The notes beneath the pieces are model-generated. The model saw only the letters and a program-made list of their open reading frames with translations, was not told the origin of the DNA and ran no database searches. From CAYFZR01 sp046760505 [NCBI: Candidatus Hydrothermarchaeota archaeon] (GTDB lineage Archaea; CAYFZR01), in assembly GCA_046760505.1 (NCBI GenBank), contig JBHIEG010000023.1:1-28319 (forward strand): a stretch of DNA of 28,319 nucleotides, in the 5' to 3' direction. This document shows, one piece after another, positions 81 through 28,266 of this stretch; positions within the stretch are counted from its first letter, which is position 1, and each line of letters starts with the position of its first letter. A program made the translations under genes and the position numbers.

Positions 81-989
81 TTGGTGCTCTTGAGTTTCTT
101 ACTTCTAACTTTCAGTACAGGTTACGCTGCGTATGTAAATTGTATTAACTGTCACAAAGAGCCCGAGAAAATACATCCTAGTGTAAACATAGAACTTTGC
201 GCAAGATGTCATTCCATAGAGGGTAAGTTTGGTAAAAATGAGATACATGTGATACACAGACCAAAAGTAGATTGTACAACTTGCCATGGAACCATGCCCA
301 CGATTATTGAGAAGCCAGTGTGTGAAAAATGTCATACATCTTTAGTAGAAGCGCATGAAGTACTTGTAAAAGAAAAAAGAGTAGAAAAAACCTGCGATGC
401 ATGCCATAAAAAAGAAGCACCAAAAATTCACCACGCCTTGGATATTGCAAGAGAGTGCCAGAGGTGTCATGAAAAGCAATTCATAGAAAAAGCCCATACA
501 CTAAAGGAACAATGCAAAGACTGTCACCTAAGCAATAATCTTATAAAAATCCATGAAAATAAAGCAGACTGTTTTTCATGTCATAAATTGCCACCAAGAA
601 AACCTGCCTGCTCAGAATGCCATGCGGTTACCAATCATCTATATGACCCAATATGCGAGGAATGCCATGTAGAAGAACAGTATAGAGGAGAGTCGGTAGA
701 TAAGGGTATAAGGGTTCACAATCCCCATGCATACAAAGTGGATTGTTGGGACTGCCATATCATACCTCTGCCTGATAAAAACTGTACAATATGTCATGTG
801 ATAAAAAAAGATGCTAAAACTATACATGATGTTCATAAGGAAGCCCCCATAAAAGAAATCTGTGATAAATGTCATAAGAAACGGGAATTAAGAGAGGCAA
901 AAGCAAGCCAAAAGGCACGAACTTCAGTATCGCTAACAAAAGATAAAATCTTCAGATTTATTCTCTACGCAATATCAAATCTGACCTAA
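81..989 (+). CDS. Secreted multihaem cytochrome c with 13 CxxCH motifs
   Basis: An extracytoplasmic c-type multihaem cytochrome, probably moving electrons outside the membrane. The reading frame holds 13 CxxCH motifs, from CINCH near residue 21 to CDKCH near residue 262, including CARCH, CTTCH, CWDCH and CTICH. Many additional histidines could be distal ligands, as in class III-like and NrfB/OmcA-style multihaem proteins. A hydrophobic N-terminus ending in TGYA-AYVN looks like a Sec signal peptide. Starting at TTG 81 gives only 16 residues with no positive charge; the open frame extends upstream through I-I-K-R-G, a better n-region, but offers no conventional start. No clear transmembrane anchor is seen at the C-terminus. 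It is monocistronic and convergent with the polyprenyl synthase. Haem count is seen directly; partner and direction of electron flow are inferred. The cytochrome b operon a few kb away is the obvious candidate partner. Confidence 0.9.
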   Translation: MVLLSFLLLTFSTGYAAYVNCINCHKEPEKIHPSVNIELCARCHSIEGKFGKNEIHVIHRPKVDCTTCHGTMPTIIEKPVCEKCHTSLVEAHEVLVKEKRVEKTCDACHKKEAPKIHHALDIARECQRCHEKQFIEKAHTLKEQCKDCHLSNNLIKIHENKADCFSCHKLPPRKPACSECHAVTNHLYDPICEECHVEEQYRGESVDKGIRVHNPHAYKVDCWDCHIIPLPDKNCTICHVIKKDAKTIHDVHKEAPIKEICDKCHKKRELREAKASQKARTSVSLTKDKIFRFILYAISNLT

Positions 990-1006
990 AATACATTCAT
1001 CCAGTC

Positions 1007-2005
1007 TTATAGTTCCCTCGTTGTTACAAATTCTAAAAGTTCGGCAAGTTTTTCCTTAGCAGGAGAATCTTCTATGAAATTAAGATCTTCCATCGCAAAG
1101 TCCTTGTAACGATTTTGTAGCAGAGATATCTCTTCCTTTACACTATATTTCTCTATTAGTTCGTGAATCTTTTCTATTTCATTCCTCTCTATATCTTTTT
1201 TTCCCCAAAGACCGAGGAGAAAATCTTTTTCTTTATTATTTAGGTGTGCAAAGAGTTTTATTATTACTATATTCATGTCCTCTTCCTTTAGATCGTTGAG
1301 AACGGGTTTTCCAATCTTATCCTGAGTTCCGTAAATATCCAAGAGGTCGTCTCTAATTTGCCATGCGTAACCTATAGACTTTCCATATGCATGGAGAGCC
1401 TCTATCTCCTCTCTCCTGCCGCCGCCAACTATCGCGCCCGCCTTGGCAGCCAGTGATATGAGAGGGCAAGTTTTTAACTCCACAATCTCTAGGTATTTCT
1501 CAACAGAAAACTTTTCTAATTCTGACCGCTCTAACTCCAGAGATGCACCCAGTACAGTCTTATAAACGCTTTCAACAAAACATTCTATCAACTCATACAG
1601 CTGATTCTTGGAGAGTGTATCCTCCTTATAAAATTTTAAGAGTCCATAGGTATCATTCAATAGAATGCCAGAGGCCAGAGTGGCTATCTTTCTATTCCAT
1701 TTTTTATGTACGGTAAGATCTCCCCTTCTCTTATCTGCATCATCAAACATATCATCTATTATTAGGGAAGATGTGTGAATTAATTCATATGCAAGGGACA
1801 CTGGAATAGCCTTCCTTCTTTCTCCATTTACTGCCTCGCATGCTAATAACGTTAAAATTGGTCTGAATCTTTTCCCTGATCTCATTATTGCATATCTAAC
1901 CGCTAGGCTTAGGGGATGATTGTCCAGACTTGAGTATAGTTCCCTTAGTTTATCGTTTATAAGGGAGCGATACTCATTATACCAATCAGGAAATATTTTA
2001 TCCAT
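1007..2005 (-). CDS. idsA: Polyprenyl (geranylgeranyl/farnesyl) diphosphate synthase
   Basis: Trans-isoprenyl diphosphate synthase that condenses IPP onto allylic diphosphates to make the C15-C20 chains used for archaeal ether lipids. At 332 residues it has normal family length. It shows the MRSGKRFRPIL substrate-binding segment near residues 41-51, the first Asp-rich motif DDMFD with following ADKRRG near residue 84, and the second Asp-rich motif RDDLLD near residue 217. The residues before the first DDxxD, which set chain length, are THTSS-like (I-H-T-S-S-L-I-I), without a bulky aromatic immediately before the motif; that fits a C20 product better than C15, but this is inference. Start ATG at 2005 is preceded by an AAGGGA-type SD. 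It is divergent from the methyltransferase/GGR genes, which also look lipid-related. Confidence 0.9.
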   Translation of the reverse strand: MDKIFPDWYNEYRSLINDKLRELYSSLDNHPLSLAVRYAIMRSGKRFRPILTLLACEAVNGERRKAIPVSLAYELIHTSSLIIDDMFDDADKRRGDLTVHKKWNRKIATLASGILLNDTYGLLKFYKEDTLSKNQLYELIECFVESVYKTVLGASLELERSELEKFSVEKYLEIVELKTCPLISLAAKAGAIVGGGRREEIEALHAYGKSIGYAWQIRDDLLDIYGTQDKIGKPVLNDLKEEDMNIVIIKLFAHLNNKEKDFLLGLWGKKDIERNEIEKIHELIEKYSVKEEISLLQNRYKDFAMEDLNFIEDSPAKEKLAELLEFVTTREL

Positions 2006-2030
2006 TTATTCATTCCCTTTATTCCAAAAT

Positions 2031-2048
2031 TTTTTAATATCATATATA
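2031..2048 (+). promoter_or_regulatory. TATA region of the methyltransferase gene (divergent with idsA)
   Basis: TTTAATAT at 2033-2040, 23-30 bases before the ATG at 2063, fits an archaeal TATA box for a leaderless transcript. The 57-base gap also has to carry the promoter of the minus-strand polyprenyl synthase. Confidence 0.5.
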
Positions 2049-2062
2049 CATTTCCATAGAAC

Positions 2063-2617
2063 ATGCCTCTCCTGTCTCATCAGAAAAGGGCGAAAACATT
2101 TTTTGATTATCTCTCAAGATTCTATGATCACATAAATCCAAGAATATACACAAAAGAAATGAAAGAACTGTTATTAAATGAAATCGAGGGAAAAAACATC
2201 TTGGATGTGGGAGTTGGAACCGGTTACACCACAAAAGAGATTCCCAACTCCATAGGGATCGATCTATCCTACGAAATGATCAAAAAAGGGAAGAAAAATT
2301 ACACGGGATCATTAATCGTGGGAGATGCTCTCAAACCTCCTTTCAAGCCAAAATCTTTTGACACGATAATTAGTGCTGGCTCTTTCTACTACTTTCCATC
2401 TCCTTTGGAGGCATTAAGAAAATTTCATGAGTTGTTGAGGGACAGGGGAGTTTTTCTCTGCATAGTTCCAAACACAAGAATACTCAGACCCTTCATCCAT
2501 ACATTCAAAGAAAAAGATCTTGAAGACCTCTACAAAAAGAGTTCTTTCAGACAGGAAAAGCTACTAAAGGTTTGCTTTGGAGGAATCGCATATTTCTCAA
2601 AGGCAAGAAAAATGTGA
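2063..2617 (+). CDS. Class I SAM-dependent methyltransferase
   Basis: Small Rossmann-fold methyltransferase of 184 residues. Motif I is ILDVGVGTGYTT (about residues 45-56). It is followed by a short post-I strand ending in the acidic IGIDLSYEMI, then GDALKPPFKPKSFDTIIS as motif II/III, and AGSFYYFPSPLEALRKFHELL as the helix typical of the UbiE/Methyltransf_11 group. Substrate unknown. The upstream TATA box and lack of an SD suggest a leaderless message. Its 3' end overlaps the start of the GGR-type reductase by about 41 bases in another frame, which suggests translational coupling. With a polyprenyl synthase, GGR and radical SAM protein around it, an isoprenoid lipid or quinone substrate is plausible (inference). 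Confidence 0.85.
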   Translation: MPLLSHQKRAKTFFDYLSRFYDHINPRIYTKEMKELLLNEIEGKNILDVGVGTGYTTKEIPNSIGIDLSYEMIKKGKKNYTGSLIVGDALKPPFKPKSFDTIISAGSFYYFPSPLEALRKFHELLRDRGVFLCIVPNTRILRPFIHTFKEKDLEDLYKKSSFRQEKLLKVCFGGIAYFSKARKM

Positions 2618-3770
2618 TGTCCTTGTAGTAGGTCTTGGTCCAGCGGGCGCCTTCGCCCTTAGAGAAGCATCTAAACATGTAGATGTAATAGGAATAGACT
2701 CCAAGGAAAGAATAGATTATCCCGTAAAGTGTGGGGAACTGCTTCCAAAAATAAATGAATTAAAGGACCTATTGCCAGAGACGGATAGAAAACTTATCGA
2801 ATACCTCTTCAAGGTGCCAAAAAGGTTTATTTCAAATGAAACAAGCAAAATCAGATTTATATCACCAAAAAACAACTCAATAGAAATAAAATTTAAAAAT
2901 ATCATATTAAATAGGAACAAATGGATAGAGGATATCGTAAAACAGGGAGAAAAAAATGGAGCAAGAATTCTGTTGAATACCATGGCAATAGGCCTTAAAG
3001 AAAATGTTTTAAAGGTTAAAAAGGAAGGAGAAATCTTTAACATCAAAGCCAAGGTGATAATCGGGGCAGACGGTGCATACTCAAAGGTGGCGAAGTGGAC
3101 CAATCTGTACACTAGAAACGATTCTTTATGCAAAGTAAAACAGCATCTCTTGGAGGGAGTTGAAAGTGAAACCGTGGACATGTACTTCGGGCGAAGAATT
3201 GCTCCGGGAACCTATGCATATATAATACCAAAGGGAAACTCCCTTGCGAATGTTGGAACCGGAGTAAGAAATTCTTTTATCGAAAAAGGAGATACTTTAT
3301 CAAAAATTTTAGATAGATTCATCAAAAATAATCCTCTGCTAAGAGATGCAAGGATAAAAAATACCATTGGGGCGATACTGCCGGTCGGACAGCCACTGCC
3401 TAAAACATGCAGTGATAGCGTGATGCTTGTAGGGGACGCTGCAAGACAGGTAATATCAATAGTTGGGGCTGGAATCCCTCCCAGCGCCATAGCAGGAAGT
3501 ATTGCTGGTGAAATTTCCGCTAGGCATATATTAGAAGATATCCCCCTCTCGTTATACGAGAAAAAGTGGAAAGCAAATCTATCCAAGGTCTTTGAGAGAT
3601 CTATTTTCCTAAGAAAATTTTGGGATAAACTCGCGATGGATGATGACCTCATAGAGAAGTTTATGGGAAGAATGAACGAACATGATGGAGAATCCATCCT
3701 TAGGGTTAAGTTATCCCCAAGAATAAAGATTACAAACAAATTATTCCCGCTTATCAAAAATCTCATCTGA
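2577..3770 (+). CDS. Geranylgeranyl reductase family flavoprotein
   Basis: FAD-dependent oxidoreductase of the digeranylgeranylglycerophospholipid reductase family, which saturates the isoprenoid chains of archaeal membrane lipids or quinones. At 397 residues the length is typical. It has the FAD dinucleotide motif VVGLGPAGA (about residues 17-25), the family signature YPVKCGE near residue 43, IGADGAYSKVA near residue 160, and the second FAD motif GDAARQVIS followed by GAGIPPSAIAGSIAGE near residues 284-310. Start TTG 2577 is chosen because AAAGG lies about 7 bases upstream and no other start precedes the Rossmann motif; it lies inside the methyltransferase gene. The chain substrate cannot be told from sequence. 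Confidence 0.88.
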   Translation: MEESHISQRQEKCDVLVVGLGPAGAFALREASKHVDVIGIDSKERIDYPVKCGELLPKINELKDLLPETDRKLIEYLFKVPKRFISNETSKIRFISPKNNSIEIKFKNIILNRNKWIEDIVKQGEKNGARILLNTMAIGLKENVLKVKKEGEIFNIKAKVIIGADGAYSKVAKWTNLYTRNDSLCKVKQHLLEGVESETVDMYFGRRIAPGTYAYIIPKGNSLANVGTGVRNSFIEKGDTLSKILDRFIKNNPLLRDARIKNTIGAILPVGQPLPKTCSDSVMLVGDAARQVISIVGAGIPPSAIAGSIAGEISARHILEDIPLSLYEKKWKANLSKVFERSIFLRKFWDKLAMDDDLIEKFMGRMNEHDGESILRVKLSPRIKITNKLFPLIKNLI

Positions 3771-3829: not shown

Positions 3830-5527
3830 ATGAGTGATCTAATTCTATTGCACCCTCCAAGCGTGTACGACTTTAGGGATATCTGTATATTTTACGGACC
3901 AGTCAGTGATCTCATACCTTCTACCCCCATATTTGAAATGTATCCGATCGGTTTTATCAGTATTGCAGAGTATTTGGAAAGACATGGATACAGAGTTAAA
4001 ATTGTAAATATTGCGGCGAAAATGTTAAAGGACAATAAGTTTAACGTTGAAAAACTGATAAAAGGCTTAGACTCGCAGGTATTCGGCATAGATCTCCACT
4101 GGCTACCCCATGCCCAAGGTTCTTTGGAGATTGCTAGAATTATAAAGAAGTACCATCCGAATTCAAAGATAGTGATGGGGGGTTTATCTTCCTCTTACTT
4201 TCACACTGAGATCATTGACCATCAAGTTGACTATATTTTAAGGGGAGACTCTACCGAAAAGCCGTTTCTCATGCTTTTAGACTGTATAGAAAAGGAAAAA
4301 AAGCCTGAGAACGTGCCAAATCTCACATGGAAAGATGATGGGAAGAAAAAAATAAATCCAATTTCTCATGTTCCCGAAAGCCTAGACGATCTCATGTTGA
4401 ATCCAGAGCCTCTGATAAAGTCGGTAATAAGAGACAGAGATATGAATGGATACATACCTTTCAAGGATTGGATAGACTATCCCCTTACCGCAGTTTTTAC
4501 ATGCAGAGGATGTCTTTACAACTGCGTAACCTGCGGCGGCTCAAAACACTTTTACTCGAGCATATGTATGAGGGAGAAAATAGCCTTAAGGAGTCCGGAT
4601 AAGATAGCGGAGGACATGGCAATTATTCAGGATTATATCCAAGGACCAATATTTATTGTCGGAGATCTTTTTCAAGGCGGGAACAAATATGCTGAAAACG
4701 TATTGAACTCAATAAAAAAAGAGAATATAGAGAATCCAGTCGTGGTAGAATTTTTTAAACCCCCTTCAGACTCATTTTTGGAAAAGATTTCCAGAACATT
4801 TAAAGAGTTTTACTTGCAGATATCTCCCGAGAGTCACGACTATTACATAAGAAGAAATCAGGGAAGAAACTACGGGAATAAAGATCTGGAGAAAGCAATA
4901 AAAAAAGCGATAGAACTTGGATGTAGTAGAATAGATGTCTTTTTCATGATAGGCATTCCTGGTCAAACAATGGATTCTGTCTACGAAACGGTTGAATACT
5001 GTGCGCATTTAATAGAATTAGATAGTTACAGAAGCGTAAGACCATTTATTTCTCCCTTAGCGCCATTTTTGGATCCGGGAAGCCTTGCATATGAAAACCC
5101 GGCTAAATTTGGATACAAACTATTTTTAAGATCTCTTGAGGATCACAGAAGGGCTCTGCTGAATCCTAGCTGGAAGCATACACTGAATTATGAAACCAAA
5201 TGGCTCAAGAAGGAAGATATAGTTAAGAGTACATACGAAAGCGCAATCAGATTAAACAGGATTAAGATGGAAAAAAATGTTATAAATCAGGAGGAAGCCC
5301 TTGAAATTGAAGAAAGGATATTGCTCTCGAGAAATATCCTTTACGAAATAGATAACGCACTGAAGTTTGACGGTGAAAAAAGAGAGAATAAACTATCGGA
5401 GTTAAAGTCTAAATTAGAGGAAGCCAATAAAGAGGTTCTATGTCCGAGAGAAGAGTTGAAATTTTCTAAAAAAGCGAAAATAAAGAAGATCAATGTACTC
5501 AAATCATTTCTGAGAAACTTTAGATGA
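3830..5527 (+). CDS. B12-binding domain / radical SAM protein
   Basis: Cobalamin-binding-type radical SAM enzyme. Starting from ATG 3830 it has 565 residues; an in-frame ATG at 3800 exists, but AAAGGAG at 3815-3821 fits the later start. The N-terminal 200 residues follow the B12-binding layout (LHPPS, PIGFISIAEYLERHGYRV, IVMGGLSSSYF, VDYILRGDSTEKPF) but lack an obvious DxHxxG base-on histidine motif. The radical SAM cluster motif CLYNCVTC supplies CxxxCxxC at residues 228, 232 and 235, with an extra Cys at 225. A GIPGQT motif lies in the barrel, and the tail (about residues 480-550) is charged and helical. From memory it resembles the archaeal Ta0216-type B12/SAM family. Reaction unknown; its place after GGR hints at lipid modification. 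Confidence 0.8.
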   Translation: MSDLILLHPPSVYDFRDICIFYGPVSDLIPSTPIFEMYPIGFISIAEYLERHGYRVKIVNIAAKMLKDNKFNVEKLIKGLDSQVFGIDLHWLPHAQGSLEIARIIKKYHPNSKIVMGGLSSSYFHTEIIDHQVDYILRGDSTEKPFLMLLDCIEKEKKPENVPNLTWKDDGKKKINPISHVPESLDDLMLNPEPLIKSVIRDRDMNGYIPFKDWIDYPLTAVFTCRGCLYNCVTCGGSKHFYSSICMREKIALRSPDKIAEDMAIIQDYIQGPIFIVGDLFQGGNKYAENVLNSIKKENIENPVVVEFFKPPSDSFLEKISRTFKEFYLQISPESHDYYIRRNQGRNYGNKDLEKAIKKAIELGCSRIDVFFMIGIPGQTMDSVYETVEYCAHLIELDSYRSVRPFISPLAPFLDPGSLAYENPAKFGYKLFLRSLEDHRRALLNPSWKHTLNYETKWLKKEDIVKSTYESAIRLNRIKMEKNVINQEEALEIEERILLSRNILYEIDNALKFDGEKRENKLSELKSKLEEANKEVLCPREELKFSKKAKIKKINVLKSFLRNFR

Positions 5528-5704
5528 ATCTGTCTTTCTAGCCTTTATGTAAACTGGGAGCAACGTTAAAAGAGTTCCTGCACTTATGAAAAACAGGGCC
5601 ATCGAGAATTCTCTTCTCGTAATAAACTCAATTCCAACCGTTACTATGAGAAGACCGAGGAGTTTAGTCATTAGGTCTATCGTGTAATAGGTTTTACCTT
5701 CCAA
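5504..5704 (-). CDS. Small two-helix membrane protein at the end of the cytochrome b operon
   Basis: A 66-residue protein with two predicted membrane helices (about residues 12-28 and 34-52) joined by a short positive loop (ITRREF) and a basic C-terminus. It starts with TTG at 5704, with AGAGGAA about 6 bases upstream directly after the stop of the CCG iron-sulfur gene; that spacing is the main argument that it is translated. It is the last gene of the minus-strand operon and overlaps the 3' end of the radical SAM gene by 24 bases tail to tail. I do not recognise the family. It may be an accessory subunit of the cytochrome b complex (inference from position). Confidence 0.55.
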   Translation of the reverse strand: MEGKTYYTIDLMTKLLGLLIVTVGIEFITRREFSMALFFISAGTLLTLLPVYIKARKTDSSKVSQK

Positions 5705-5716
5705 ATTTATTCCTCT

Positions 5717-6877
5717 TTATATGCCCATCGACTGAAGAACCAATTCTGATACGTCTCTCACCTTGATTTGTGCGTTAGCCTTTTTTACACCATCAGAGAG
5801 ATTTAATCTACAGAAAGGGCAGCAACTCGCTATCAACTCTGCACCAGTAGAAATTGCCTCATTTGCTCTTATTTCTGCAAGGGTAATTGCATCATCAGCA
5901 AATTGAGCCCTGAATCCCCCTCCTGCGCCGCAGCATCTCGCTAGTTCTTTTATATTTTCCATTTCTACTAACTCCAACTCAGGTATGGACTCCAATATCT
6001 TCCTTGGCTCCTCATATATTCCTACGTGCCTACCTAGATGACATGGATCATGATAAGTTACTCTCATTTCCATGTTCTTCTTCAAATCGATTCTGCCTTC
6101 GTTTAGGAGCTCATATATGTATTGAGAGATATGTTTGACCTCTACATCAAAATCTAGTCCTAAAGAATCAGCCCACTTGGGGTAGTCTATGTGAAGCGTA
6201 CGAAAACAACCTGCACAAGCTGCCAAAACAGTTTCTGTACCTCTATTTTTGAACTCGCTTATGTTGTGGGTGATTAAATCATATGCTATGTCAAGTTGAC
6301 CAGTTCTGAGAAACGGAGAGCCACAGCACCACTCATTTGGACCGAGAAAATCAAAATTTATTCCAGCGGCATTCAATATTTTTACGCTGCTTTTTGCAAG
6401 ATCAAGCATTCTGTAAGCCGCTGTGCATCCAGCGAAGTATAAAATTGGAGAATTCTCTTTTATGTTTATATCTTCAGGAATCCAGGCTCCTCTTTGAGAG
6501 GGTTCTTCATTGTATGGATTGTGTTTTGCTTGCGTAGCCTTTTTTATCCTAACATGATTCGGCATAGGTCCTAATTCAAGTCGAACCAGTTCAGAGCGTA
6601 TCTCTTCCCAGAGTTCTACCGTGGGTATGTTAACCTGACAAACCTCGTGGCAGTACCCGCATGTTGTGCACTGGTATATTCTTTCAGTCATGTTTTGGTC
6701 AAATCTTGCTCTGTTTTTTAAAACATTCTTCAAGAAAAATAACTTTCCTCTTGGCGTTGAAGATTCCCATTTGTTTAAATCATACATGCAGCAAACAGGT
6801 ATACAATAACCGCATTGTGCACAACTGAAAGTTTCCCATGACATTTCGTCGGTTAACTTTACTCTCCAGTCTACCAT
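5717..6877 (-). CDS. Iron-sulfur oxidoreductase subunit, GlcF/HdrD-like (two CCG domains)
   Basis: Electron-transfer subunit of 386 residues that normally pairs with a GlcD-type FAD oxidase or works as HdrD. Two [4Fe-4S] ferredoxin motifs are complete: CAQCGYCIPVC (19-29) and CTTCGYCHEVC (70-80). Two CCG (cysteine-rich) domains follow: the first with FAGC, WCCGSPFLRTG and CAGC; the second with DPCHLGRH, RCCGAGGGF and SCCPFC. In HdrB/HdrD such domains hold noncubane [4Fe-4S] clusters acting on disulfides; in GlcF/LutA-type proteins they relay electrons. An AGGAGG SD precedes ATG 6877. It lies directly downstream of the FAD subunit and five genes after a monohaem cytochrome in the same operon, so electrons probably run between FAD, these clusters and the cytochrome b. 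Confidence 0.9.
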   Translation of the reverse strand: MVDWRVKLTDEMSWETFSCAQCGYCIPVCCMYDLNKWESSTPRGKLFFLKNVLKNRARFDQNMTERIYQCTTCGYCHEVCQVNIPTVELWEEIRSELVRLELGPMPNHVRIKKATQAKHNPYNEEPSQRGAWIPEDINIKENSPILYFAGCTAAYRMLDLAKSSVKILNAAGINFDFLGPNEWCCGSPFLRTGQLDIAYDLITHNISEFKNRGTETVLAACAGCFRTLHIDYPKWADSLGLDFDVEVKHISQYIYELLNEGRIDLKKNMEMRVTYHDPCHLGRHVGIYEEPRKILESIPELELVEMENIKELARCCGAGGGFRAQFADDAITLAEIRANEAISTGAELIASCCPFCRLNLSDGVKKANAQIKVRDVSELVLQSMGI

Positions 6878-6887
6878 AAAAAACCTC

Positions 6888-8336
6888 CTATTGGCTCTTA
6901 GGTCTTTTGTATTTAAATATTTTGCTTCCGATGCTCATAAAGGGTTTTGATAATTTAATTGCAAGAGAAACAGGCATTATTGGGAAAGTTTTTATCTTCG
7001 GCGAAAATATCTTCCCTGGATTCATGATGTCATTTGGATCCACTTCCTTTTTGAATCTCTTTATCTTTTCGTATCTTTCCTTTCCGAAGAAACTCTCGGA
7101 TTCACCTGAAAACCATATTCCAGTAGAGTATATTCTTCCGCCGAACTTCTTTGCTACATCGATAATTTTAAATGCGTTGTTCCAACCAAAAGTGAATCTC
7201 AAGAAAGAGCGTTCGTCATCAAGGAAGAATGCTAGAATAGCTGCTTCTCTCTCGCTGATTACCTGTCCCTCCGCACCTATATACATGCCCTTTGTCTCTT
7301 TTTCGATTGCCTCGAGCGCCTCACCCAGTCTCTCCAATGGGACTAAGGCCTCGCTAGGTATTATACTCGGACCGAGCCTTTTTAATCTCATTGGATAAAA
7401 TCTCTCTTCCCATTCTTCTTTCGAGATTTCACCGCTAACTATTTCTCCAGCGTTTGAATATATTATGTCCACGAGTTTTTCCTTAGAATTGTTGTAGTCA
7501 GATTCGTAATAAGCGATCAATGCATAGTACTTGTCTTCTGGTAGAACTTTATGCCCGGTAGCCTCCTGCTTCAGTTTAGTGAATCCTGGAGTGCCAAAAC
7601 CTATTGTAAATGGTTTCACTTCCCTTACAATTTGATTTATTGCTCTATTTAGGGTTGCTGCATTTTTGAACAATACGGTTACTGGAACGATTTCCTCCTT
7701 GTCCTTTACCTCAATCTTCAACTTTGTTATGAATCCGGTTATTCCCTCACAGTCGCACACAAGGTCTAGATCATTGCCCTTGAACGTCATTACCTGTCCA
7801 TTGGGAGTTACTACCTCTGCCTCTCTTACCACATCGCATGCCCCTCCATGGGCTAGACTGCCGATTCCCGTGCCTCCCTGGGCAATCCAGCCCGCTACAG
7901 TAGCAGATGGAGCGCTGGATGGATAATTCTTGAGCTGTAATCCTTTTTTGTTTAGTTCCTTCTCAAGATTCCACCAAATTACGCCTGGCTCTACCGTAGC
8001 GGTCTTTTCATCTTTATTTATCTCGATTATTTTACCCATCCTCGAAAGATCGACCACTATTCCTCCGTACACTGGTAAGGCGCCTCCGTATCCTCCAGAT
8101 GCTGATCCTCTGGGTATCAAAGGCATTCTGAATTCGTTAGCCAAATTAACAAGCTTTATGAGTTCTTCATTATTTTCTGGAAGTACCACCGCATCAGGAA
8201 ATGTTGATAGCATAAAAACTGAAACCAAATCAGGAAGCATGCCTACATCATGTGAGTAGAGGAGTCTCTCGTCCTCGTCAAATCTTACCCTATCCCCAAA
8301 TATTTCTTTCAACCTGTATTTTAACTCAACATCCAT
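6888..8336 (-). CDS. FAD-linked oxidoreductase, GlcD / D-lactate dehydrogenase type
   Basis: Flavoprotein of the VAO (FAD_binding_4) family, 482 residues, probably oxidising a 2-hydroxy acid or similar substrate, or working in reverse. The FAD pyrophosphate loop is PRGSASGGYGGALPVYGG near residue 75, then IVVDLSRMGKI, and SSAPSATVAGWIAQGGTGIGS near residue 140. The FAD-oxidase C-terminal cap ends in DPNDIMNPGKIF near residue 450, as in GlcD and Dld. A GGTGAT SD precedes ATG 8336. It follows the subunit-IV cytochrome gene and precedes the CCG protein. Substrate identity (D-lactate, glycolate, other acids, long-chain intermediates) cannot be read from sequence; the family label should not be taken as D-lactate proof. 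Confidence 0.88.
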   Translation of the reverse strand: MDVELKYRLKEIFGDRVRFDEDERLLYSHDVGMLPDLVSVFMLSTFPDAVVLPENNEELIKLVNLANEFRMPLIPRGSASGGYGGALPVYGGIVVDLSRMGKIIEINKDEKTATVEPGVIWWNLEKELNKKGLQLKNYPSSAPSATVAGWIAQGGTGIGSLAHGGACDVVREAEVVTPNGQVMTFKGNDLDLVCDCEGITGFITKLKIEVKDKEEIVPVTVLFKNAATLNRAINQIVREVKPFTIGFGTPGFTKLKQEATGHKVLPEDKYYALIAYYESDYNNSKEKLVDIIYSNAGEIVSGEISKEEWEERFYPMRLKRLGPSIIPSEALVPLERLGEALEAIEKETKGMYIGAEGQVISEREAAILAFFLDDERSFLRFTFGWNNAFKIIDVAKKFGGRIYSTGIWFSGESESFFGKERYEKIKRFKKEVDPNDIMNPGKIFSPKIKTFPIMPVSLAIKLSKPFMSIGSKIFKYKRPKSQ

Positions 8337-8345
8337 TCTATCACC

Positions 8346-8786
8346 TTAATGATGCACTACTGCGTATACACTAAGACCTATCATGGCTATTATTGTTAGG
8401 ACACCGATTATAGTCCAGAAAGGTCTTTCCCAAGGGTAATATGCTTCTTTTCTGTCTATAAATGGGAGCAGAAATAACAATAGAATGAATAGTGCCGGGC
8501 CTATGATTCCACCGATTAACTTAGCCGGTATAGGACCTATTGGCCAAGTCCATGTCTTGAGAAAGCCAAAAACCGGGAAGAAGTACCAATCCGGATAATT
8601 TGAGGGCGGCATCTTGAAAGGATCAAACGGTGGATGAACAGGCAACTGGAGAAATGCGGCTAGGAAACACAAGGCTGCGAATACCAAGAGCATGACTGCT
8701 GGATATCTGAAGACCTCGTCTTTAAAGAGTATCGCGTGTCTTTCTTCCTTTTTTTCCAATCTTCTTTTTACTTCATCTATCTTCAT
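8346..8786 (-). CDS. Cytochrome b C-terminal subunit (b6f subunit IV-like)
   Basis: Membrane subunit of about 146 residues with three transmembrane helices, equivalent to subunit IV of a b6f complex or the C-terminal third of cytochrome b. The quinol-oxidation-site motif is PDWYFFPVFGFLKTW, a conservative Glu-to-Asp form of the PEWY motif. It carries HPPFDPFKMPPSNYPDWYF before helix 2 and PFIDRKEAYYPWERP before helix 3, both typical of this domain. Of two nearby starts (8792 and 8786), 8786 is preferred because GAGGA lies 7 bases upstream of it and only 1 base from the other. It is encoded just after the b6-like subunit, the split arrangement of b6f/menaquinol b6c complexes. It should pair with that subunit to form the quinone-reactive core. 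Confidence 0.88.
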   Translation of the reverse strand: MKIDEVKRRLEKKEERHAILFKDEVFRYPAVMLLVFAALCFLAAFLQLPVHPPFDPFKMPPSNYPDWYFFPVFGFLKTWTWPIGPIPAKLIGGIIGPALFILLLFLLPFIDRKEAYYPWERPFWTIIGVLTIIAMIGLSVYAVVHH

Positions 8787-8795
8787 TTTCATTCC

Positions 8796-9473
8796 TCATA
8801 GAGGTTCTTTAATGCCTTGGTTTCTCACCAATATGAAGTGTATCACGCATAAACCCATTAGGATAGCGGGAAGTACTAGGATGTGTAGGGTATAAAATCT
8901 TGCTAGGGTTCCGCCACCAATTTCAGCTCCTCCAAGAAGTAATTTCTGAAACACAGGTCCAATTACCGGTACAGAGGCTACCAACTGGAGCCCTATGGTG
9001 CTAGCCCAGTAAGAAACCTGATCCCAAGGAAGCATGTATCCTGAGAAACCCAGACCGAGGGTACAGAACAGAAGCAGCAATCCTATCATCCAATTCAGTT
9101 CCCTTGGCTTTTGATACGCTCCTACCAGATAAACTCTAAACATATGGAGATAAACCGCAGCGATCATTAGGTGAGCAGCCCAGTGATGAAGACTTCGCAT
9201 GAAGCTTCCGAGATAAACCTCCGTTGAGATGAACTTTACGCTCTCATATGCCATTTCTGCAGAGGGCACGTAATAGAACGCAAGGAAAATTCCTGTGAAT
9301 GCATCTACTAAAAAAGCAAAGAATGCTATCCCTCCCAAGCAGTAGGCAGGATTCATTGCCTGCCTCGGTACAGGTCTATCGAGTATGCTTTTTAGTAGTT
9401 CAAATACATCTATAGCGCCTGTTCTTTCGTCGATCCACTGAAGTATCCTTTCCTCCGGTTTAATCAAAGGCAT
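8796..9473 (-). CDS. Cytochrome b6-type subunit with two bis-His haems and a haem c(n) Cys
   Basis: Di-haem membrane cytochrome closely following cytochrome b6. From ATG 9473 it has 225 residues; an upstream in-frame ATG at 9497 exists, but GGTGGG at 9479-9484 lies 5 bases before 9473. Haem ligands are H96/H110 (spacing x13) and H197/H212 (spacing x14, the b6f-type spacing). Cys45 in YCLGGI matches the b6 cysteine that covalently binds haem c(n)/c(i). PWDQVSYWA in the Qo region, KPRELNW and the final RNQGI-K-EPL are also b6-like. Four helices are expected. It sits after a small membrane protein and a monohaem cytochrome, with no Rieske gene, so it is probably the quinone-reactive core of an alternative complex. 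Confidence 0.93.
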   Translation of the reverse strand: MPLIKPEERILQWIDERTGAIDVFELLKSILDRPVPRQAMNPAYCLGGIAFFAFLVDAFTGIFLAFYYVPSAEMAYESVKFISTEVYLGSFMRSLHHWAAHLMIAAVYLHMFRVYLVGAYQKPRELNWMIGLLLLFCTLGLGFSGYMLPWDQVSYWASTIGLQLVASVPVIGPVFQKLLLGGAEIGGGTLARFYTLHILVLPAILMGLCVIHFILVRNQGIKEPL

Positions 9474-9474
9474 T

Positions 9475-9735
9475 TTAACCCACCGAAATTTCTTCAATAG
9501 GCATAAATTTTCTTCTCAGCAGTGCAAAGATCATAGCTAGGAAAAGACTGCATAGTCCAATTAAGAAGCCAATAACATCAATCTTTTCTCCAAAGATGGC
9601 TTTGAGGACATTTCCTCCAAGTTTTTCAGGTCCGAATATAATCATGCCAAGAATAAGGAGAGACGTCAGAATTATCAATCCAGATAGTATGGTTAATGTA
9701 ATCACGAATGAAAGAGAGAGAACGGATCTTTCCAT
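9475..9735 (-). CDS. Small membrane protein of the cytochrome b operon
   Basis: An 86-residue protein with two hydrophobic helices (about residues 5-33 and 51-70) separated by a loop with FGPEKLGGN and ending in RRKFMP. ATG 9735 follows AGGTGAT with a short spacer. Its stop is one base before the chosen ATG of the b6 subunit and the SD of that gene lies inside its last codons, so translation is coupled. I do not recognise the family; it is most likely a small subunit of the same membrane complex, comparable in position to petite accessory subunits of other b6-type complexes, but that is inference. Confidence 0.7.
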   Translation of the reverse strand: MERSVLSLSFVITLTILSGLIILTSLLILGMIIFGPEKLGGNVLKAIFGEKIDVIGFLIGLCSLFLAMIFALLRRKFMPIEEISVG

Positions 9736-9744
9736 TCAATCACC

Positions 9745-10059
9745 TTACAGTTTCAGTGCGAATATTATAGAGAGCAACACGAAAAGCGTTGCAAAGGCAA
9801 TTATACCCATGTCCCATTGGTGTAGTTTGACGCCAACATTTGGTTCTTCAGGCTTTTCCTCGATTGTTTTTTCTGGTGGATGATAGCCAGCAAATGTATG
9901 ATGCTGTGCATAATACATGCCAAGATCATTCAAGGCGGGTGGGGCCACATCGTGGCAGAAAGTGCAGTCTCTGCCTGTTTCTTCCGCATATTTAGGCTTT
10001 GCTTGAGAGATGCCTAAAGATGAGATTATAAAAATGATGATAAGTAACATCCTCTTCAT
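9745..10059 (-). CDS. Membrane-anchored monohaem cytochrome c
   Basis: A 104-residue protein: basic signal peptide (MKRMLLIIIF to ISQA), one haem motif CTFCH near residue 32, a short linker rich in Pro and Glu, and a C-terminal helix (about residues 84-102) ending in KL. The topology is haem outside with a C-terminal anchor. The region after the haem, PPALNDLGMYYAQHHTFAGYH, holds several possible axial ligands (Met, His). It is the first gene of the seven-gene minus-strand operon, with a TATA box and an AGGTGG SD. It probably exchanges electrons with the b-type cytochrome on the outer face, taking the place a cytochrome f/c1 would hold, or passes them to multihaem cytochromes (inference). Confidence 0.85.
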   Translation of the reverse strand: MKRMLLIIIFIISSLGISQAKPKYAEETGRDCTFCHDVAPPALNDLGMYYAQHHTFAGYHPPEKTIEEKPEEPNVGVKLHQWDMGIIAFATLFVLLSIIFALKL

Positions 10060-10063
10060 GATT

Positions 10064-10103
10064 CCACCTGTGATAAACCTTCAAAAGAGACTACATATAT
10101 ATA
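10064..10103 (-). promoter_or_regulatory. Promoter of the cytochrome b/FAD/CCG operon
   Basis: On the minus strand a TATATATA element (10096-10103) lies about 37-44 bases before ATG 10059, and AGGTGG (10064-10069) is a well-spaced SD. This predicts a short 5' UTR of about 14 bases. The rest of the 10060-10294 gap is AT-rich and shows no convincing gene. Confidence 0.55.
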
Positions 10104-10294
10104 CGTTTCGACTTTGGGTTCTGTTAATTAATTTGTGATGATGAAAAATAAATCAGAAAGTAGAAAATTCGATTGTATCCTCCCAAAAGAGAGAACCATA
10201 AATTTTCGCCTTATTATCTAAAATGAGTCAAAGATAGATAGAAGTATACACTTAGAAAAATATGGAATAAATTTAAATAATAAAGGAGAAGGAA

Positions 10295-17126: not shown

Positions 17127-17816
17127 TTAGTCTTTTCCTATTGGAAGAAATGGAATCAGAGACCTCGCAAACTCAGGAAGTTGTCTTGTCTGCAATTGTA
17201 TCTGACCTGGACCTGTGAACTCAAAGACGAGTCCTTCTCCGCTTAGCACTGTAGACTTCAAACCTCCAACTCTCCTTACCGTGTAGTTCATTGTGTCGCT
17301 GAATGCCACCACATGTCCCGTATCCACGATGAGTTTTTCTCCAGGTTTTAACTCCTTCTTCTCTATCCCTCCAAAGGAAGAAACCCAGACTATTCCTGTA
17401 CCACTCGCTCTAAGCATTATTATGTCGCTTTCTCCAAGAAAGCCCTTCCAGCCCTGCCATGATGTGTCTATATCGATTCCAGGAGTGTTTGCTATGTAAC
17501 TACCGCTCTGTATTATCAGTCCCTCATTATTTAATTCTATGGCCTCTATATCTCCAATGTGTGGTCCAGTAAGCGCAATTTCACCATTTTCCCTCGCATG
17601 AAAAGTATTTGTCCAGAAAGATTCTCCTCCCAAAAATGAGGTTTTCAGACTTTTCAAAAGCCCACCTAAACCTCCTCCACCGCGCATATGGGTTTCTATC
17701 TCTATCGTTGGGGTCATGTGCACCATAGCGCCTGCCTCGGCAGTTATGCTTTCTCCCTTATTGAGTTTTATCTTCAAAAGAGAGAAAGACGGTCTGTAAA
17801 GAACTTCATATTCCAC
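17127..17816 (-). CDS. AIM24 / TIGR00266 family protein
   Basis: A 229-residue beta-rich protein of the widespread TIGR00266 (AIM24-like) family, of unknown biochemical role. Recognisable segments are ESITAEAGAMVHMTPTIEIET near residue 22, a Gly-rich loop RGGGGLGGLLKSL near 45, LGGESFWTN, GLIIQSGSYIA near 118, and GEGLVFEFTGPGQIQLQTR near 193. GTG 17816 is preceded by AGGTGAT and lies just after the stop of the upstream helical protein, so the two form an operon. A hairpin terminator follows it. Confidence 0.85.
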   Translation of the reverse strand: MEYEVLYRPSFSLLKIKLNKGESITAEAGAMVHMTPTIEIETHMRGGGGLGGLLKSLKTSFLGGESFWTNTFHARENGEIALTGPHIGDIEAIELNNEGLIIQSGSYIANTPGIDIDTSWQGWKGFLGESDIIMLRASGTGIVWVSSFGGIEKKELKPGEKLIVDTGHVVAFSDTMNYTVRRVGGLKSTVLSGEGLVFEFTGPGQIQLQTRQLPEFARSLIPFLPIGKD

Positions 17817-25958: not shown

Positions 25959-28070
25959 TCAAGTAAAACCTCCTCTTACACCATATGTTTCATCGTAGGA
26001 AATATCTATTATTGGAAAGCCTTCATCTGGTATTTTAACCATCCAAATTGGTATTGGAACAGTATATTCCTTTATCATTGCGAAAATTTTTCTTTTTTCC
26101 ATGTAAGTTTCTTTTTTCATTTGATCATATAGTTTTCTAACCTCTTTTTCATAGATACTTGGAATACCAAGCACTGTAAATTCATCTCTGAACTTTAAGA
26201 GTTTCTGAGCAAATTCATCTCTAACTCTCCAAGAATATAAGAAGGCAGTATTATCTTGCCAGTCGCTCAACAAATTATATATCCTCCTTTGCTTTACTTC
26301 TGAAAGAAAAATTTCTTTATCGTATTCTTCTATCAGTTGAAGTTCATTTTCAAGATTTTCGCTCTCTAAACGCTTTAGGAATTTCCAAGTTCTACGAACA
26401 TCTTCCTTTTCGTATGGATATCCTTTATTAGAATTTATCTCGTTAGGAAAGGTTATCCACGCATTTATTTTCTCTGTTTTCTCTTTATACCTATTTACTC
26501 TACCAAACCTCTGAACAAGAGATTCTAAAGGAGCACATTCAGTTACCATAAAATCAAACGATACATCGAGAGAGACCTCTATGACTTGGGTAGCAACTAA
26601 AATAAAACTCTCTCCGTTTCTTATCCAATTGGTAATTTTTTCTTCTTTTTCACTTCGATGCTTATAAATGAAACGTGAGTGTAGTAACTCTGTGTTTACG
26701 TCTGAATTCCTCAACAAGTTTTGCAGTTCCTTAAATACATTCTGGGATTTTTCTACGGTGTTACATACTATCGCTATCCTAAATGGGTTTTTTTGAGAAC
26801 TAAAAATATCAAGAACGCTCTCAACAATCTCTTGTAAATCTTCCTCAACAATCTTGTACATTACTCTTCTTCTCTTTCTGAATTCATCGTTTAACCATAA
26901 TTTTTCTACTTTTCCTCCAAATATCCCAGTGAAATGTTCTAGAAGTTTGGAAGGAAAAGTTGCTGACATTACACAAAACTTTAAGTTGTAAAGTTCAGCA
27001 AAACGTTCAAGGAAATAAGAAAGAATGTACAGCATATTCGGTGAAAAAGTATGGACTTCATCAAGAATAATTACCGAATTTCTTAAATGGGGGCGTTTTA
27101 TAAAGTATTTTCCCACTTGAAGGAATGTCAACAATAGCTGGTCAAGTGTGGTAATGATAACAGGCTGAACGAAATAGGAAGAGAACATTAATTCCCTGAA
27201 ATCGCTGTCCTCTCTTTTTACGGCCTCTACATCAGCATAATAAAAAAGTTCACCCACATTTTCTTTCCCAAAAAAGCGACACAGATCATCATAAAAACTC
27301 TTTATTGAAGTGATTGTGGGCAGAACATAGATTATCCTTGAGCCATTTCCTATCGCATATGAGAGAGAGGCTGCCGTCTTTCCCCAACCAGTGGGGGCTC
27401 TGATGAGCAAATTCGTATCTATTTTACTTAGATTTAACTGTGTTTTTAGAGTATCACTTCTTATTTTTAGTCTTTTTTTCTTGATTTTCTCATTAAGCCA
27501 TGCTTCTAGGTCTTTAACATTTTTATTCGGTTTCTTTATCGTGTAATTTGTTAAGTTGTTAGCTGATAGAATATCCGCAAATTTGAAAAGTCCATAAACA
27601 TCAACAAAGTTGATCTTCGACATTAGATCGAGTTTAGAGACTAATCTGTAAAGATTTCTTCTCCAATTTATCATTTCGCTTTCAATCCATTTTTTCTCGC
27701 TTACAATAGCCTCATTTTTAACCCTATATACATCCTCATCCTCTATGCTTGTTAAACTACTGTGATGTTTAAGTATAAACAAAGGAAGAAGAGGATACTT
27801 CCCCAATTCCTCCCTACCCATGATAAAAAGAATGAGAGTTGAAAGGGGAGAGTGAAATGGATTTTTTTCGTTATGGACGCTCCAGTCATTTCTAAGTTTT
27901 CCTAAATCATGGTAATAGCAAAGGAGTTCAGCAAATTCTTGATAGTTCTTCAAATCATAAAAATTTAGAAATTCAAAATTTAATCCTTTGCATTCCTCAA
28001 TATGTTTACCTAACTTTTTACCTTCATGCGATTCTTTACTCCAAATTCTCTCTTCTAAATCGCTCAACAT
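25959..28070 (-). CDS. cas3: CRISPR-associated Cas3, HD nuclease-helicase
   Basis: Effector of a type I CRISPR-Cas system: degrades target DNA after Cascade recruitment. Domains in order: HD nuclease (about residues 14-130; SHEGKKLGKHI, YYHDLGKLRNDW, HSPLST, LKHHSSLT), then a superfamily 2 helicase with Walker A APTGWGKTAASL (about 225), motif II DEVHTFSP (about 335), motif III SATFP, and motif VI ESLVQRFGRVNR (about 520), plus a C-terminal accessory domain. ATG 28070 is chosen; GTG 28073 immediately upstream is also possible. It overlaps an upstream minus-strand frame by about 35 bases, as in a cas operon. HD and helicase are in one protein, which argues against type I-A; the exact subtype is not visible. 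Confidence 0.93.
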   Translation of the reverse strand: MLSDLEERIWSKESHEGKKLGKHIEECKGLNFEFLNFYDLKNYQEFAELLCYYHDLGKLRNDWSVHNEKNPFHSPLSTLILFIMGREELGKYPLLPLFILKHHSSLTSIEDEDVYRVKNEAIVSEKKWIESEMINWRRNLYRLVSKLDLMSKINFVDVYGLFKFADILSANNLTNYTIKKPNKNVKDLEAWLNEKIKKKRLKIRSDTLKTQLNLSKIDTNLLIRAPTGWGKTAASLSYAIGNGSRIIYVLPTITSIKSFYDDLCRFFGKENVGELFYYADVEAVKREDSDFRELMFSSYFVQPVIITTLDQLLLTFLQVGKYFIKRPHLRNSVIILDEVHTFSPNMLYILSYFLERFAELYNLKFCVMSATFPSKLLEHFTGIFGGKVEKLWLNDEFRKRRRVMYKIVEEDLQEIVESVLDIFSSQKNPFRIAIVCNTVEKSQNVFKELQNLLRNSDVNTELLHSRFIYKHRSEKEEKITNWIRNGESFILVATQVIEVSLDVSFDFMVTECAPLESLVQRFGRVNRYKEKTEKINAWITFPNEINSNKGYPYEKEDVRRTWKFLKRLESENLENELQLIEEYDKEIFLSEVKQRRIYNLLSDWQDNTAFLYSWRVRDEFAQKLLKFRDEFTVLGIPSIYEKEVRKLYDQMKKETYMEKRKIFAMIKEYTVPIPIWMVKIPDEGFPIIDISYDETYGVRGGFT

Positions 28071-28266
28071 CACTTACATCCCATATAGCTATACCATTTA
28101 CTGTTTTTATTGGTTTTTTAACCTTAAATTCTACATTAAAACCTTGATAAAAGAAAGTGTTCAAATATAACACTGTTATTAACTTTGTTCTAAAGCGCCT
28201 CTTGATCAAATTTTCTGTGATTTTCAGGATATCTTTCTCTCCTCTTCCGGTAACGCAACCCTCCAT
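28036..28266 (-). CDS. Unidentified gene upstream of cas3, possibly frameshifted C-terminus
   Basis: A 76-residue frame whose end overlaps cas3, containing KITENLIKRRFRTKLITVLY, FFYQGFNVEFKVKKPIKTV and NGIAIWDVSDVERF. In type I loci the gene just before cas3 is commonly cas5, but I do not recognise this sequence as such. A 31-codon frame entering from the window edge (to 28224) overlaps its first residues and ends in RVALPEEERKIS; joining the two by a one-base shift near 28226-28266 would give a smooth reading. ATG 28266 has no good SD. It may be the C-terminal part of a longer gene. Confidence 0.4.
   Translation of the reverse strand: MEGCVTGRGEKDILKITENLIKRRFRTKLITVLYLNTFFYQGFNVEFKVKKPIKTVNGIAIWDVSDVERFRRENLE

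What the first reader, a model, noticed from the sequence alone, without database searches (positions are those of the whole stretch)
5504..10059. Rieske-less b6f-like cytochrome complex fused by operon to a GlcD/HdrD-type dehydrogenase in an archaeon
Seen: seven close-packed minus-strand genes encode monohaem cytochrome c, small membrane protein, b6-type cytochrome b, subunit IV, FAD oxidoreductase, CCG Fe-S protein and a small membrane protein, with SDs inside or next to the preceding stops. Known: b6f/b6c complexes normally need a Rieske protein as the high-potential acceptor; GlcD/GlcF or HdrD pairs normally dock to other cytochromes or reduce quinone directly. Inferred: a quinone-linked complex in which the FAD/CCG arm exchanges electrons with a b6-type core and a c-type cytochrome on the outside, a candidate undescribed respiratory complex.
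Basis: partly seen in the sequence, partly recalled or inferred. Interest (0 to 1): 0.82.

Follow-up and report, generated by a model that had tools for sequence, protein, structure and literature searches.

The report
Rieske-lacking b6 complex with HdrD-like arm
An archaeon has a seven-gene operon for what looks like a respiratory membrane complex that joins a photosynthesis-style cytochrome b6 core to a cytoplasmic flavin and iron-sulfur arm; related complexes keep an extra iron-sulfur subunit (Rieske) that is missing from this stretch of DNA, so it looks like an unusual variant of a little-studied kind.

Summary
In detail: seven tightly packed minus-strand genes (10059-5504) encode a tail-anchored monohaem c, a small membrane protein, b6-type cytochrome b (four haem His, haem-ci Cys), subunit IV (PDWY), a GlcD-like flavoprotein, a two-CCG HdrD-like protein and a second small membrane protein, memT. 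No Rieske gene lies in the 28.3 kb; no whole genome is held.

Relatives support linking the Fe-S/flavin arm to the b6 core. In 31 fetched Thermoplasmatota loci the Fer4 part of the arm (in 15 also CCG) is fused to subunit IV; memT often follows; GlcD lies within 8 kb of b6 in 10 relatives. An HMM built without the window picks memT alone from the window (E 6e-11).

They also temper it: 32 of 32 readable loci of this type and 27 of 27 Chloroflexota monohaem-b6 loci carry Rieske, so this is a Rieske-lacking (or Rieske-elsewhere) member. The GlcD-like protein lacks GEHGxG, so glycolate or lactate is unsupported. Anammox Rieske/b complexes with cytoplasmic FeS/FAD arms are the nearest described kind. 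Most likely a cytoplasmic-arm:quinone:cytochrome c complex; direction unproven. New variant of a known kind; interest 0.6.

The parts
9745..10059 (-). P0001: tail-anchored monohaem c-type cytochrome (signal-like N-terminus, CTFCH, C-terminal hydrophobic stretch), in the place where Thermoplasmatota relatives have Rieske
   Evidence: no significant family hit
9475..9735 (-). P0002: small protein with two hydrophobic stretches, no His, no homologue found
8796..9473 (-). P0003: b6-type cytochrome b; H96/H110/H197/H212, C45 (haem-ci position), GYMLPWDQ
8346..8792 (-). P0004: subunit IV-like, three hydrophobic stretches, PDWY Qo motif
6888..8336 (-). P0005: GlcD-like VAO-type FAD protein without GEHGxG
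5717..6877 (-). P0006: HdrD/TfrB-like protein, Fer4 dicluster plus two complete CCG sites
5504..5704 (-). P0007 (memT): two hydrophobic stretches; family found beside b6/IV genes in Thermoplasmatota; TTG start; overlaps the convergent gene by 24 nt
10060..10125 (-). Upstream region with BRE/TATA-like CGAAACGTATATATATG
   Evidence: read by eye; no archaeal promoter scan run
81..989 (+). 13-haem multihaem cytochrome c, possible downstream electron acceptor (inference)
1007..3770 (.). polyprenyl synthetase, methyltransferase and geranylgeranyl-reductase-like genes, possible quinone side-chain genes (inference)

Best explanation
The operon encodes one membrane complex. The b6/IV core carries haems bL, bH and ci and both quinone sites. 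On the cytoplasmic side the flavoprotein P0005 and the Fe-S protein P0006 exchange electrons with haem ci/bH; memT helps to assemble or dock. On the outside the tail-anchored monohaem P0001 is the electron exit, doing the job of Rieske plus cytochrome f, and may feed the 13-haem cytochrome encoded nearby. Most likely net flow is from an unknown cytoplasmic donor through FAD and Fe-S clusters into the quinone pool, with quinol then oxidised at Qo towards cytochrome c. Shown: genes, ligand residues, and linkage or fusion of Fe-S arm and b6/IV in relatives. Inferred: assembly in this organism, cytoplasmic docking, direction of flow, and that P0001 replaces Rieske.
For: Tight operon. Four haem His, haem-ci Cys and PDWY kept. 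Fer4, in 15 of them with CCG, in one frame with subunit IV in 31 fetched Thermoplasmatota loci (36 frames listed, 5 of them duplicate short loci; CCG content). In the shortest forms (L123, L131) Fer4 starts about 30-40 residues after the last hydrophobic stretch. memT homology, E 6e-11. GlcD-like gene within 8 kb of b6 in 11 of 34 non-edge b6-IV-CCG/memT loci, the window included; 8 of 22 genomes holding both genes have them within about 10 kb, against 0.3 expected under an assumed rate (my count). b6 tree: window sister to the Thermoplasmatota CCG/memT clade, 90/78. Chloroflexota monohaem-b6-IV-Rieske-CCG clusters. b6/IV pairs without adjacent Rieske do exist in Thermoplasmatota, the 12-haem type.
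Against: Rieske is present in every readable CCG/memT-type relative (32 of 32) and in 27 of 27 Chloroflexota loci. The window's CCG is of the GlcD-paired HdrD class, not the IV-fused class, so its arm was assembled separately. memT also follows IV without adjacent CCG (L136, L138-L140), so it is tied to b6/IV rather than to CCG. Several fetched Thermoplasmatota b6 loci show neither CCG nor memT (L130, L134, L135, L215, L225-L229). Only 13 of 55 FAD-bearing loci also held b6 (many short or duplicate). Hydropathy helix counts before Fer4 are even in 23 of 36 rows and odd in 13, so cytoplasmic placement is not settled. The tree fork is below the tool's star threshold and the window branch is long.
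Confidence: 0.5

Rival explanations
1. An ordinary Rieske/b6 complex plus a separate GlcD-CCG enzyme that share an operon. The Rieske gene lies elsewhere in the genome; GlcD-CCG reduces quinone or another acceptor on its own.
For: Rieske in all readable CCG/memT-type and Chloroflexota relatives; GlcD-CCG pairs often occur without b6 in the fetched stretch; PDWY as in Rieske-bearing relatives.
Against: Fer4/CCG in one frame with IV in relatives; memT, a b6/IV neighbour in relatives, closes the window operon after CCG; P0001/P0002 sit where Rieske sits.
Confidence: 0.25
2. Reverse use: quinol is bifurcated at Qo, the high-potential electron going to P0001 and the low-potential one through bL, bH and ci into P0006/P0005 to reduce a cytoplasmic acceptor, as proposed for anammox Rieske/b complexes that make NAD(P)H.
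For: Same layout of core plus cytoplasmic FeS/FAD arm (PMC12954380 passages); Qo motifs and haem-ci Cys kept.
Against: No NAD(P)-binding family in P0005 or P0006 at E<=1; no Rieske seen as high-potential gate; no evidence of a high-potential acceptor.
Confidence: 0.15
3. The CCG protein is itself catalytic: it oxidises thiols or reduces a disulfide with Hdr-type noncubane clusters, and the b6 core replaces the usual HdrE.
For: P0006 keeps all Cys of both CCG sites and lacks the His cap of EtfD; best NCBIfam match TfrB, 263 bits.
Against: TfrB cut-off (385) not reached; a flavoprotein is encoded beside it. Genes for thiol cofactors were not looked for.
Confidence: 0.1

Closest known systems
Anammox (Kuenenia) Rieske/cytochrome b complexes with NAD(P) oxidoreductase arm (PMC12954380, passages)
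   Same: cytochrome b, SUIV-like core with haem cN and a cytoplasmic FeS/FAD arm
   Different: NAD(P) reductase arm, Rieske and multihaem c there; GlcD/CCG arm, monohaem c and no Rieske in the window here
Cytochrome b6f / b6c complex
   Same: split b6 and subunit IV, four His, haem-ci Cys, PxWY
   Different: no Rieske in the window, no cytochrome f; CCG/FAD genes added
EtfD / EMO (M. smegmatis EtfD, 9ojn; PMC13083937, passages)
   Same: Fer4 plus two CCG domains wired to a membrane b haem and quinone
   Different: EtfD uses its own five-TM b-haem domain and ETF; ligands differ (Thr and His cap in EtfD, full Cys set here)
HdrDE / TfrB
   Same: P0006 sequence class
   Different: no HdrE-type cytochrome b in the operon; GlcD-like partner
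Methanoperedens Rieske/cytb complex (PMC4683180, passages)
   Same: archaeal b/c complex proposed to feed c-type cytochromes
   Different: has Rieske and pentahaem cytochromes; no FAD/CCG arm in the passages read

Membership tests
Rieske/cytochrome b (bc1/b6f) complex | cytochrome b with four haem His | tested here: met
   H96/H110/H197/H212; Pfam
Rieske/cytochrome b (bc1/b6f) complex | Qo motif PEWY-type in subunit IV | tested here: met
   PDWY, also in Rieske-bearing relatives
Rieske/cytochrome b (bc1/b6f) complex | b6-type: split IV and haem-ci Cys | tested here: met
   C45 in YCLGG; role of this Cys recalled
Rieske/cytochrome b (bc1/b6f) complex | Rieske 2Fe-2S protein | tested here: inconclusive
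   none in the window; genome not held
EtfD/EMO | CCG protein with Fer4 domains | tested here: met
EtfD/EMO | EtfD ligand set (Thr at D1, His cap at D2) | tested here: not met
   CC and Gly in P0006
EtfD/EMO | own five-TM b-haem domain | tested here: not met
   P0006 has no hydrophobic stretch over threshold
GlcD glycolate oxidase / D-lactate dehydrogenase | FAD_binding_4 and FAD-oxidase_C domains | tested here: met
GlcD glycolate oxidase / D-lactate dehydrogenase | GEHGxG motif (seen in chain 8jdb) and curated GlcD cut-off | tested here: not met
   GESESFFG instead; 125 of 567.9 bits
HdrD/TfrB | two complete CCG cysteine sets | tested here: met
HdrD/TfrB | disulfide/thiol chemistry | not testable with these tools
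   needs enzyme assay
Anammox-type R/b complex with NAD(P) arm | NAD(P) oxidoreductase subunit | tested here: not met
   no NAD(P)-binding family in P0005/P0006 at E<=1
ExtP b-type cytochrome | NCBIfam cut-off 290 bits | tested here: not met
   253.6 bits

The most novel reading that the evidence does not exclude
A Q-cycle complex without any Rieske protein, in which one tail-anchored haem c takes electrons straight from the Qo site, while haem ci on the other side is wired to a HdrD-like protein with two Hdr-type noncubane clusters and an unknown-substrate flavoprotein, so that quinone chemistry is coupled directly to cytoplasmic flavin or disulfide chemistry.
Probability: 0.17. Interest if true: 0.85.

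Novelty: new variant of a known kind. Interest (0 to 1): 0.6.

Why it matters
Complex III-type enzymes are usually drawn as closed machines between quinol and cytochrome c. Fusion of an Fe-S (HdrD-like) arm to subunit IV in many Thermoplasmatota, a like gene cluster in one Chloroflexota order, and this GlcD/HdrD variant suggest a class whose cytoplasmic-side haems are wired to metabolism. If the window member truly works without Rieske, it tests whether Rieske is needed for quinol bifurcation at all.

Tried and rejected
Rejected: that the Chloroflexota locus L001/L141 is a second Rieske-less case. Its contig ends inside subunit IV, beyond an inserted ORF; in 27 of 27 fetched relatives Rieske follows IV. 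Rejected: L123 as a Rieske-less case; its b6 ORF runs off the contig. Rejected: glycolate or lactate as named substrate. Weak: link of GlcD-CCG to quinone genes; 9 of 55 FAD-bearing loci had a UbiA/GGR/polyprenyl-synthase HMM hit, some of them probably thioredoxin-reductase-like false hits, against 12 of 80 b6-only loci, so no enrichment.

Host phylum: full-length matches reached at most 46% for NOG1, 45% for P0005 and 47% for P0006; one partial P0005 match at a contig end was 49% over 140 residues (G209) and was not followed. Other archaeal phyla could not be reached: genome searches need a handle, and of the 80 loci kept by the single genome-contig scan (257 found) two bore archaeal titles, both placed in Thermoplasmatota. 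One search repeated the same phylum from another centre and added nothing.

Literature: nine searches of the open PMC library listed nothing about a b6/IV-CCG complex. I saw titles and abstract starts only, of capped lists (25 of 28, 20 of 114 and 12 of 417 papers), and passages of four papers; subscription papers and preprints are not covered.

Dropped rows: the tree used 18 of the 80 genome-contig loci plus fetched loci; identical sequences, partial hits (L290 among them) and duplicate short loci were left out. Labels were set by locus: the L124 row is its 12-haem-type b6 though labelled R-b6-IV_MHC, and L001 (labelled other_bact) lies on the same contig as L141. The FAD count skipped the two contig-edge loci, one of which (L169) has a GlcD-like gene.
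Full report
What is there. The window holds seven minus-strand ORFs between 10059 and 5504, with gaps of 9, 1, 3, 9, 10 and 12 nt and SD-like sequences before each start. Upstream of the first is a BRE/TATA-like CGAAACGTATATATATG, read by eye. P0001 (104 aa) has a signal-like stretch, one CTFCH and a C-terminal hydrophobic stretch; P0002 (86 aa) and P0007 (66 aa) each have two hydrophobic stretches; P0003 is Cytochrome_B; P0004 is Cytochrom_B_C; P0005 is FAD_binding_4 plus FAD-oxidase_C; P0006 has Fer4 and two CCG stretches.

Cofactor residues. P0003 aligns along nearly its whole length with solved b6 chains and keeps H96/H110 and H197/H212 (spacings 14 and 15) and C45 in YCLGG, the haem-ci cysteine position (the role of this Cys is recalled). 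GYMLPWDQ and, in P0004, PDWY keep the Qo site; the 36 IV-fusion frames of relatives also have PDWY. P0002 and P0007 hold no His, so they add no obvious extra haem. P0006 keeps both complete CCG cysteine sets ('EWCCGSP...ACAGCF' and 'RCCGAGGG...CCPFC'), unlike EtfD, where a Thr and a His give a linear and a capped cluster (passages of PMC13083937; alignment). Its nearest solved relative is EtfD 9ojn, E 9e-36, and its best NCBIfam match TfrB, below cut-off. P0005 has GESESFFG where D-lactate dehydrogenase 8jdb has GEHGIG; none of the 64 aligned rows of GlcD-like segments (window, duplicates and gapped rows included) shows GEHG at that place. Its substrate is therefore open.

Are these genes a unit elsewhere? 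P0003 was searched in 194 genomes of the phylum of L026 (titled Thermoplasmata archaeon): 85 had a match at E<=1e-8. It was searched in 53 further relatives: 28 had one. I fetched wider DNA for part of these and marked it with HMMs. A recurrent order is Rieske, b6, subunit IV with Fer4 or Fer4-CCG in the same frame, then memT. One search lists 36 frames with both IV and a CCG-HMM hit; five are duplicate short loci, so 31 loci. In 15 of these the CCG domain itself is in the frame (L126 cut by a contig end); in the other 16 only Fer4 is, with the CCG part, where seen, in another frame close by. In nine loci (L169-L176, L179) a GlcD-like gene lies on the opposite strand beyond memT. In L138 and L139 the order is Rieske, b6, IV, memT, with a GlcD::CCG fusion 4-6 kb away; L252 has a GlcD::CCG fusion facing Rieske and the start of a b6 gene at a contig end. 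Several other fetched b6 loci (L130, L134, L135, L215, L225-L229) show neither CCG nor memT, so the arm is not universal. Of 34 non-edge b6-IV loci followed by CCG or memT (window included), 11 have a GlcD-like hit within 8 kb, the window being one. Among the 53 relatives, 22 genomes have both a P0005 match and a P0003 match, and in 8 they lie within about 10 kb (my count); with an assumed chance rate of 1.4% per genome the binomial tail is 4e-10, though these genomes are related and not independent.

memT. An HMM built from 28 sequences, none from the window, finds one of 266 window frames, P0007, E 6e-11. This small protein ties the window operon to the Thermoplasmatota complexes independently of the cytochromes. 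It also occurs right after IV where no CCG is adjacent (L136, L138-L140), so its tie is to b6/IV. A b6 tree (118 rows) places the window as sister to the CCG/memT clade with 90/78 support, below the tool's star threshold and on a long branch.

Rieske. Of the 36 loci (window included), two are cut at the contig edge (L140, L169). Of the other 34, 32 have Rieske within 3 kb upstream of b6; the exceptions are L123, whose b6 frame runs off the contig, and the window, which has 18 kb of sequence upstream. In the window P0001 and P0002 stand where Rieske stands. In Chloroflexota, 28 of 151 genomes of the order of G003 have the monohaem-b6 protein at E<=1e-80; of the 27 fetched besides G003, 27 have CxxCH in the b6 frame and Rieske after subunit IV, and 22 have CCG downstream; the five that do not have at most 2.0 kb left on the contig. 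G003 itself looked Rieske-less only because its contig ends in subunit IV. ETF genes lie between an upstream CCG and b6 in G003, but no ETF hit appeared in the other 27 (ETF HMMs from three sequences at most, so a weak test). On the other side, a second Thermoplasmatota b6/IV type with a 12-haem cytochrome has no adjacent Rieske.

Where is the arm? In the shortest fusions (L123, L131) Fer4 begins about 30-40 residues after the last hydrophobic stretch, with basic residues between, as expected for a domain on the cytoplasmic surface. Crude hydropathy counts give an even number of helices before Fer4 in 23 of 36 rows and an odd number in 13, so this is favoured, not settled. The window's own CCG is not of the fused class but of the class that pairs with GlcD in the fetched Thermoplasmatota loci. 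P0006-like proteins are common there: 88 of 250 genomes of the class of G232 have a match at E<=1e-75, at most 47% identical. Only 13 of 55 FAD-bearing loci (many short or duplicate) also show b6. The window thus has a widespread GlcD-CCG pair inside a b6/memT operon.

How it most likely works. The b6/IV core binds quinone at both sides. Electrons move between the P0005 flavin, the P0006 clusters and haem ci/bH; P0001 is the outer exit, possibly towards the 13-haem cytochrome encoded at 81-989. I judge input from a cytoplasmic donor into the quinone pool most likely. The reverse, bifurcation-driven direction has a close precedent in the proposal for anammox Rieske/b complexes, whose cytoplasmic FeS/FAD arm is thought to receive electrons from the N-side haems (passages of PMC12954380). 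A plain operon of two enzymes with Rieske elsewhere remains possible, because no genome is held for the window.

Known or new. Known kinds: b6f/b6c; anammox complexes with a NAD(P) arm; EtfD and HdrDE as CCG:quinone enzymes. A b6/IV core carrying a CCG arm, in Thermoplasmatota and in one Chloroflexota order, was not named in what I saw of nine literature searches: titles and abstract starts of capped lists, open PMC papers only. Among the loci of this type the window is the one readable case without adjacent Rieske. I file it as a new variant of a known kind.

Limits. Host phylum is unresolved; only Thermoplasmatota and bacterial genomes could be reached. No structure prediction was run. Complex assembly, docking and direction are inference.

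Noticed in passing
L124:6528-7247 and L178, L183, L184, L233, L234: A second b6/IV pair in Thermoplasmatota without an adjacent Rieske; where the upstream gene was read (L124, L178) it encodes a 12-haem cytochrome c. The L124 copy has an altered Qo-side motif (GYVLPMDE instead of PWDQ). A Rieske-lacking multihaem variant of the core.
   Followed up: partly
L264-L290: Conserved Chloroflexota cluster: b6 with an N-terminal CxxCH segment, subunit IV, Rieske, then CCG protein (27 loci; CCG seen in the 22 with enough downstream sequence).
   Followed up: partly
L170-L176, L182, L232: Subunit IV fused to about five extra hydrophobic segments before Fer4, reminiscent of an added HdrE/EtfD-like membrane domain.
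   Followed up: partly
L142:10247-13033: 928-aa subunit IV::Fer4/CCG fusion with a roughly 270-residue non-membrane insert between hydrophobic segments.
   Followed up: no
L246:2843-13726: GlcD::CCG fusion flanked by geranylgeranyl-reductase-like, polyprenyl synthetase and two UbiA genes on one side and SCO1 and a protein with weak cupredoxin/COX2 matches on the other.
   Followed up: partly
window 81-3770: 13-haem cytochrome c followed by polyprenyl synthetase, UbiE-like methyltransferase and geranylgeranyl-reductase-like genes next to the operon.
   Followed up: partly
window 17127-17816: AIM24 homologue 58% identical to one in L159, a locus that also holds a GlcD::CCG fusion; the nearest hint of host kinship.
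   Followed up: no
G209:C52:3-422: Partial P0005 match, 49% over 140 residues at a contig start, higher than any full-length match seen.
   Followed up: no
window 25959-28073: DEAD-box helicase with Cas3-like C-terminal match; not examined.
   Followed up: no
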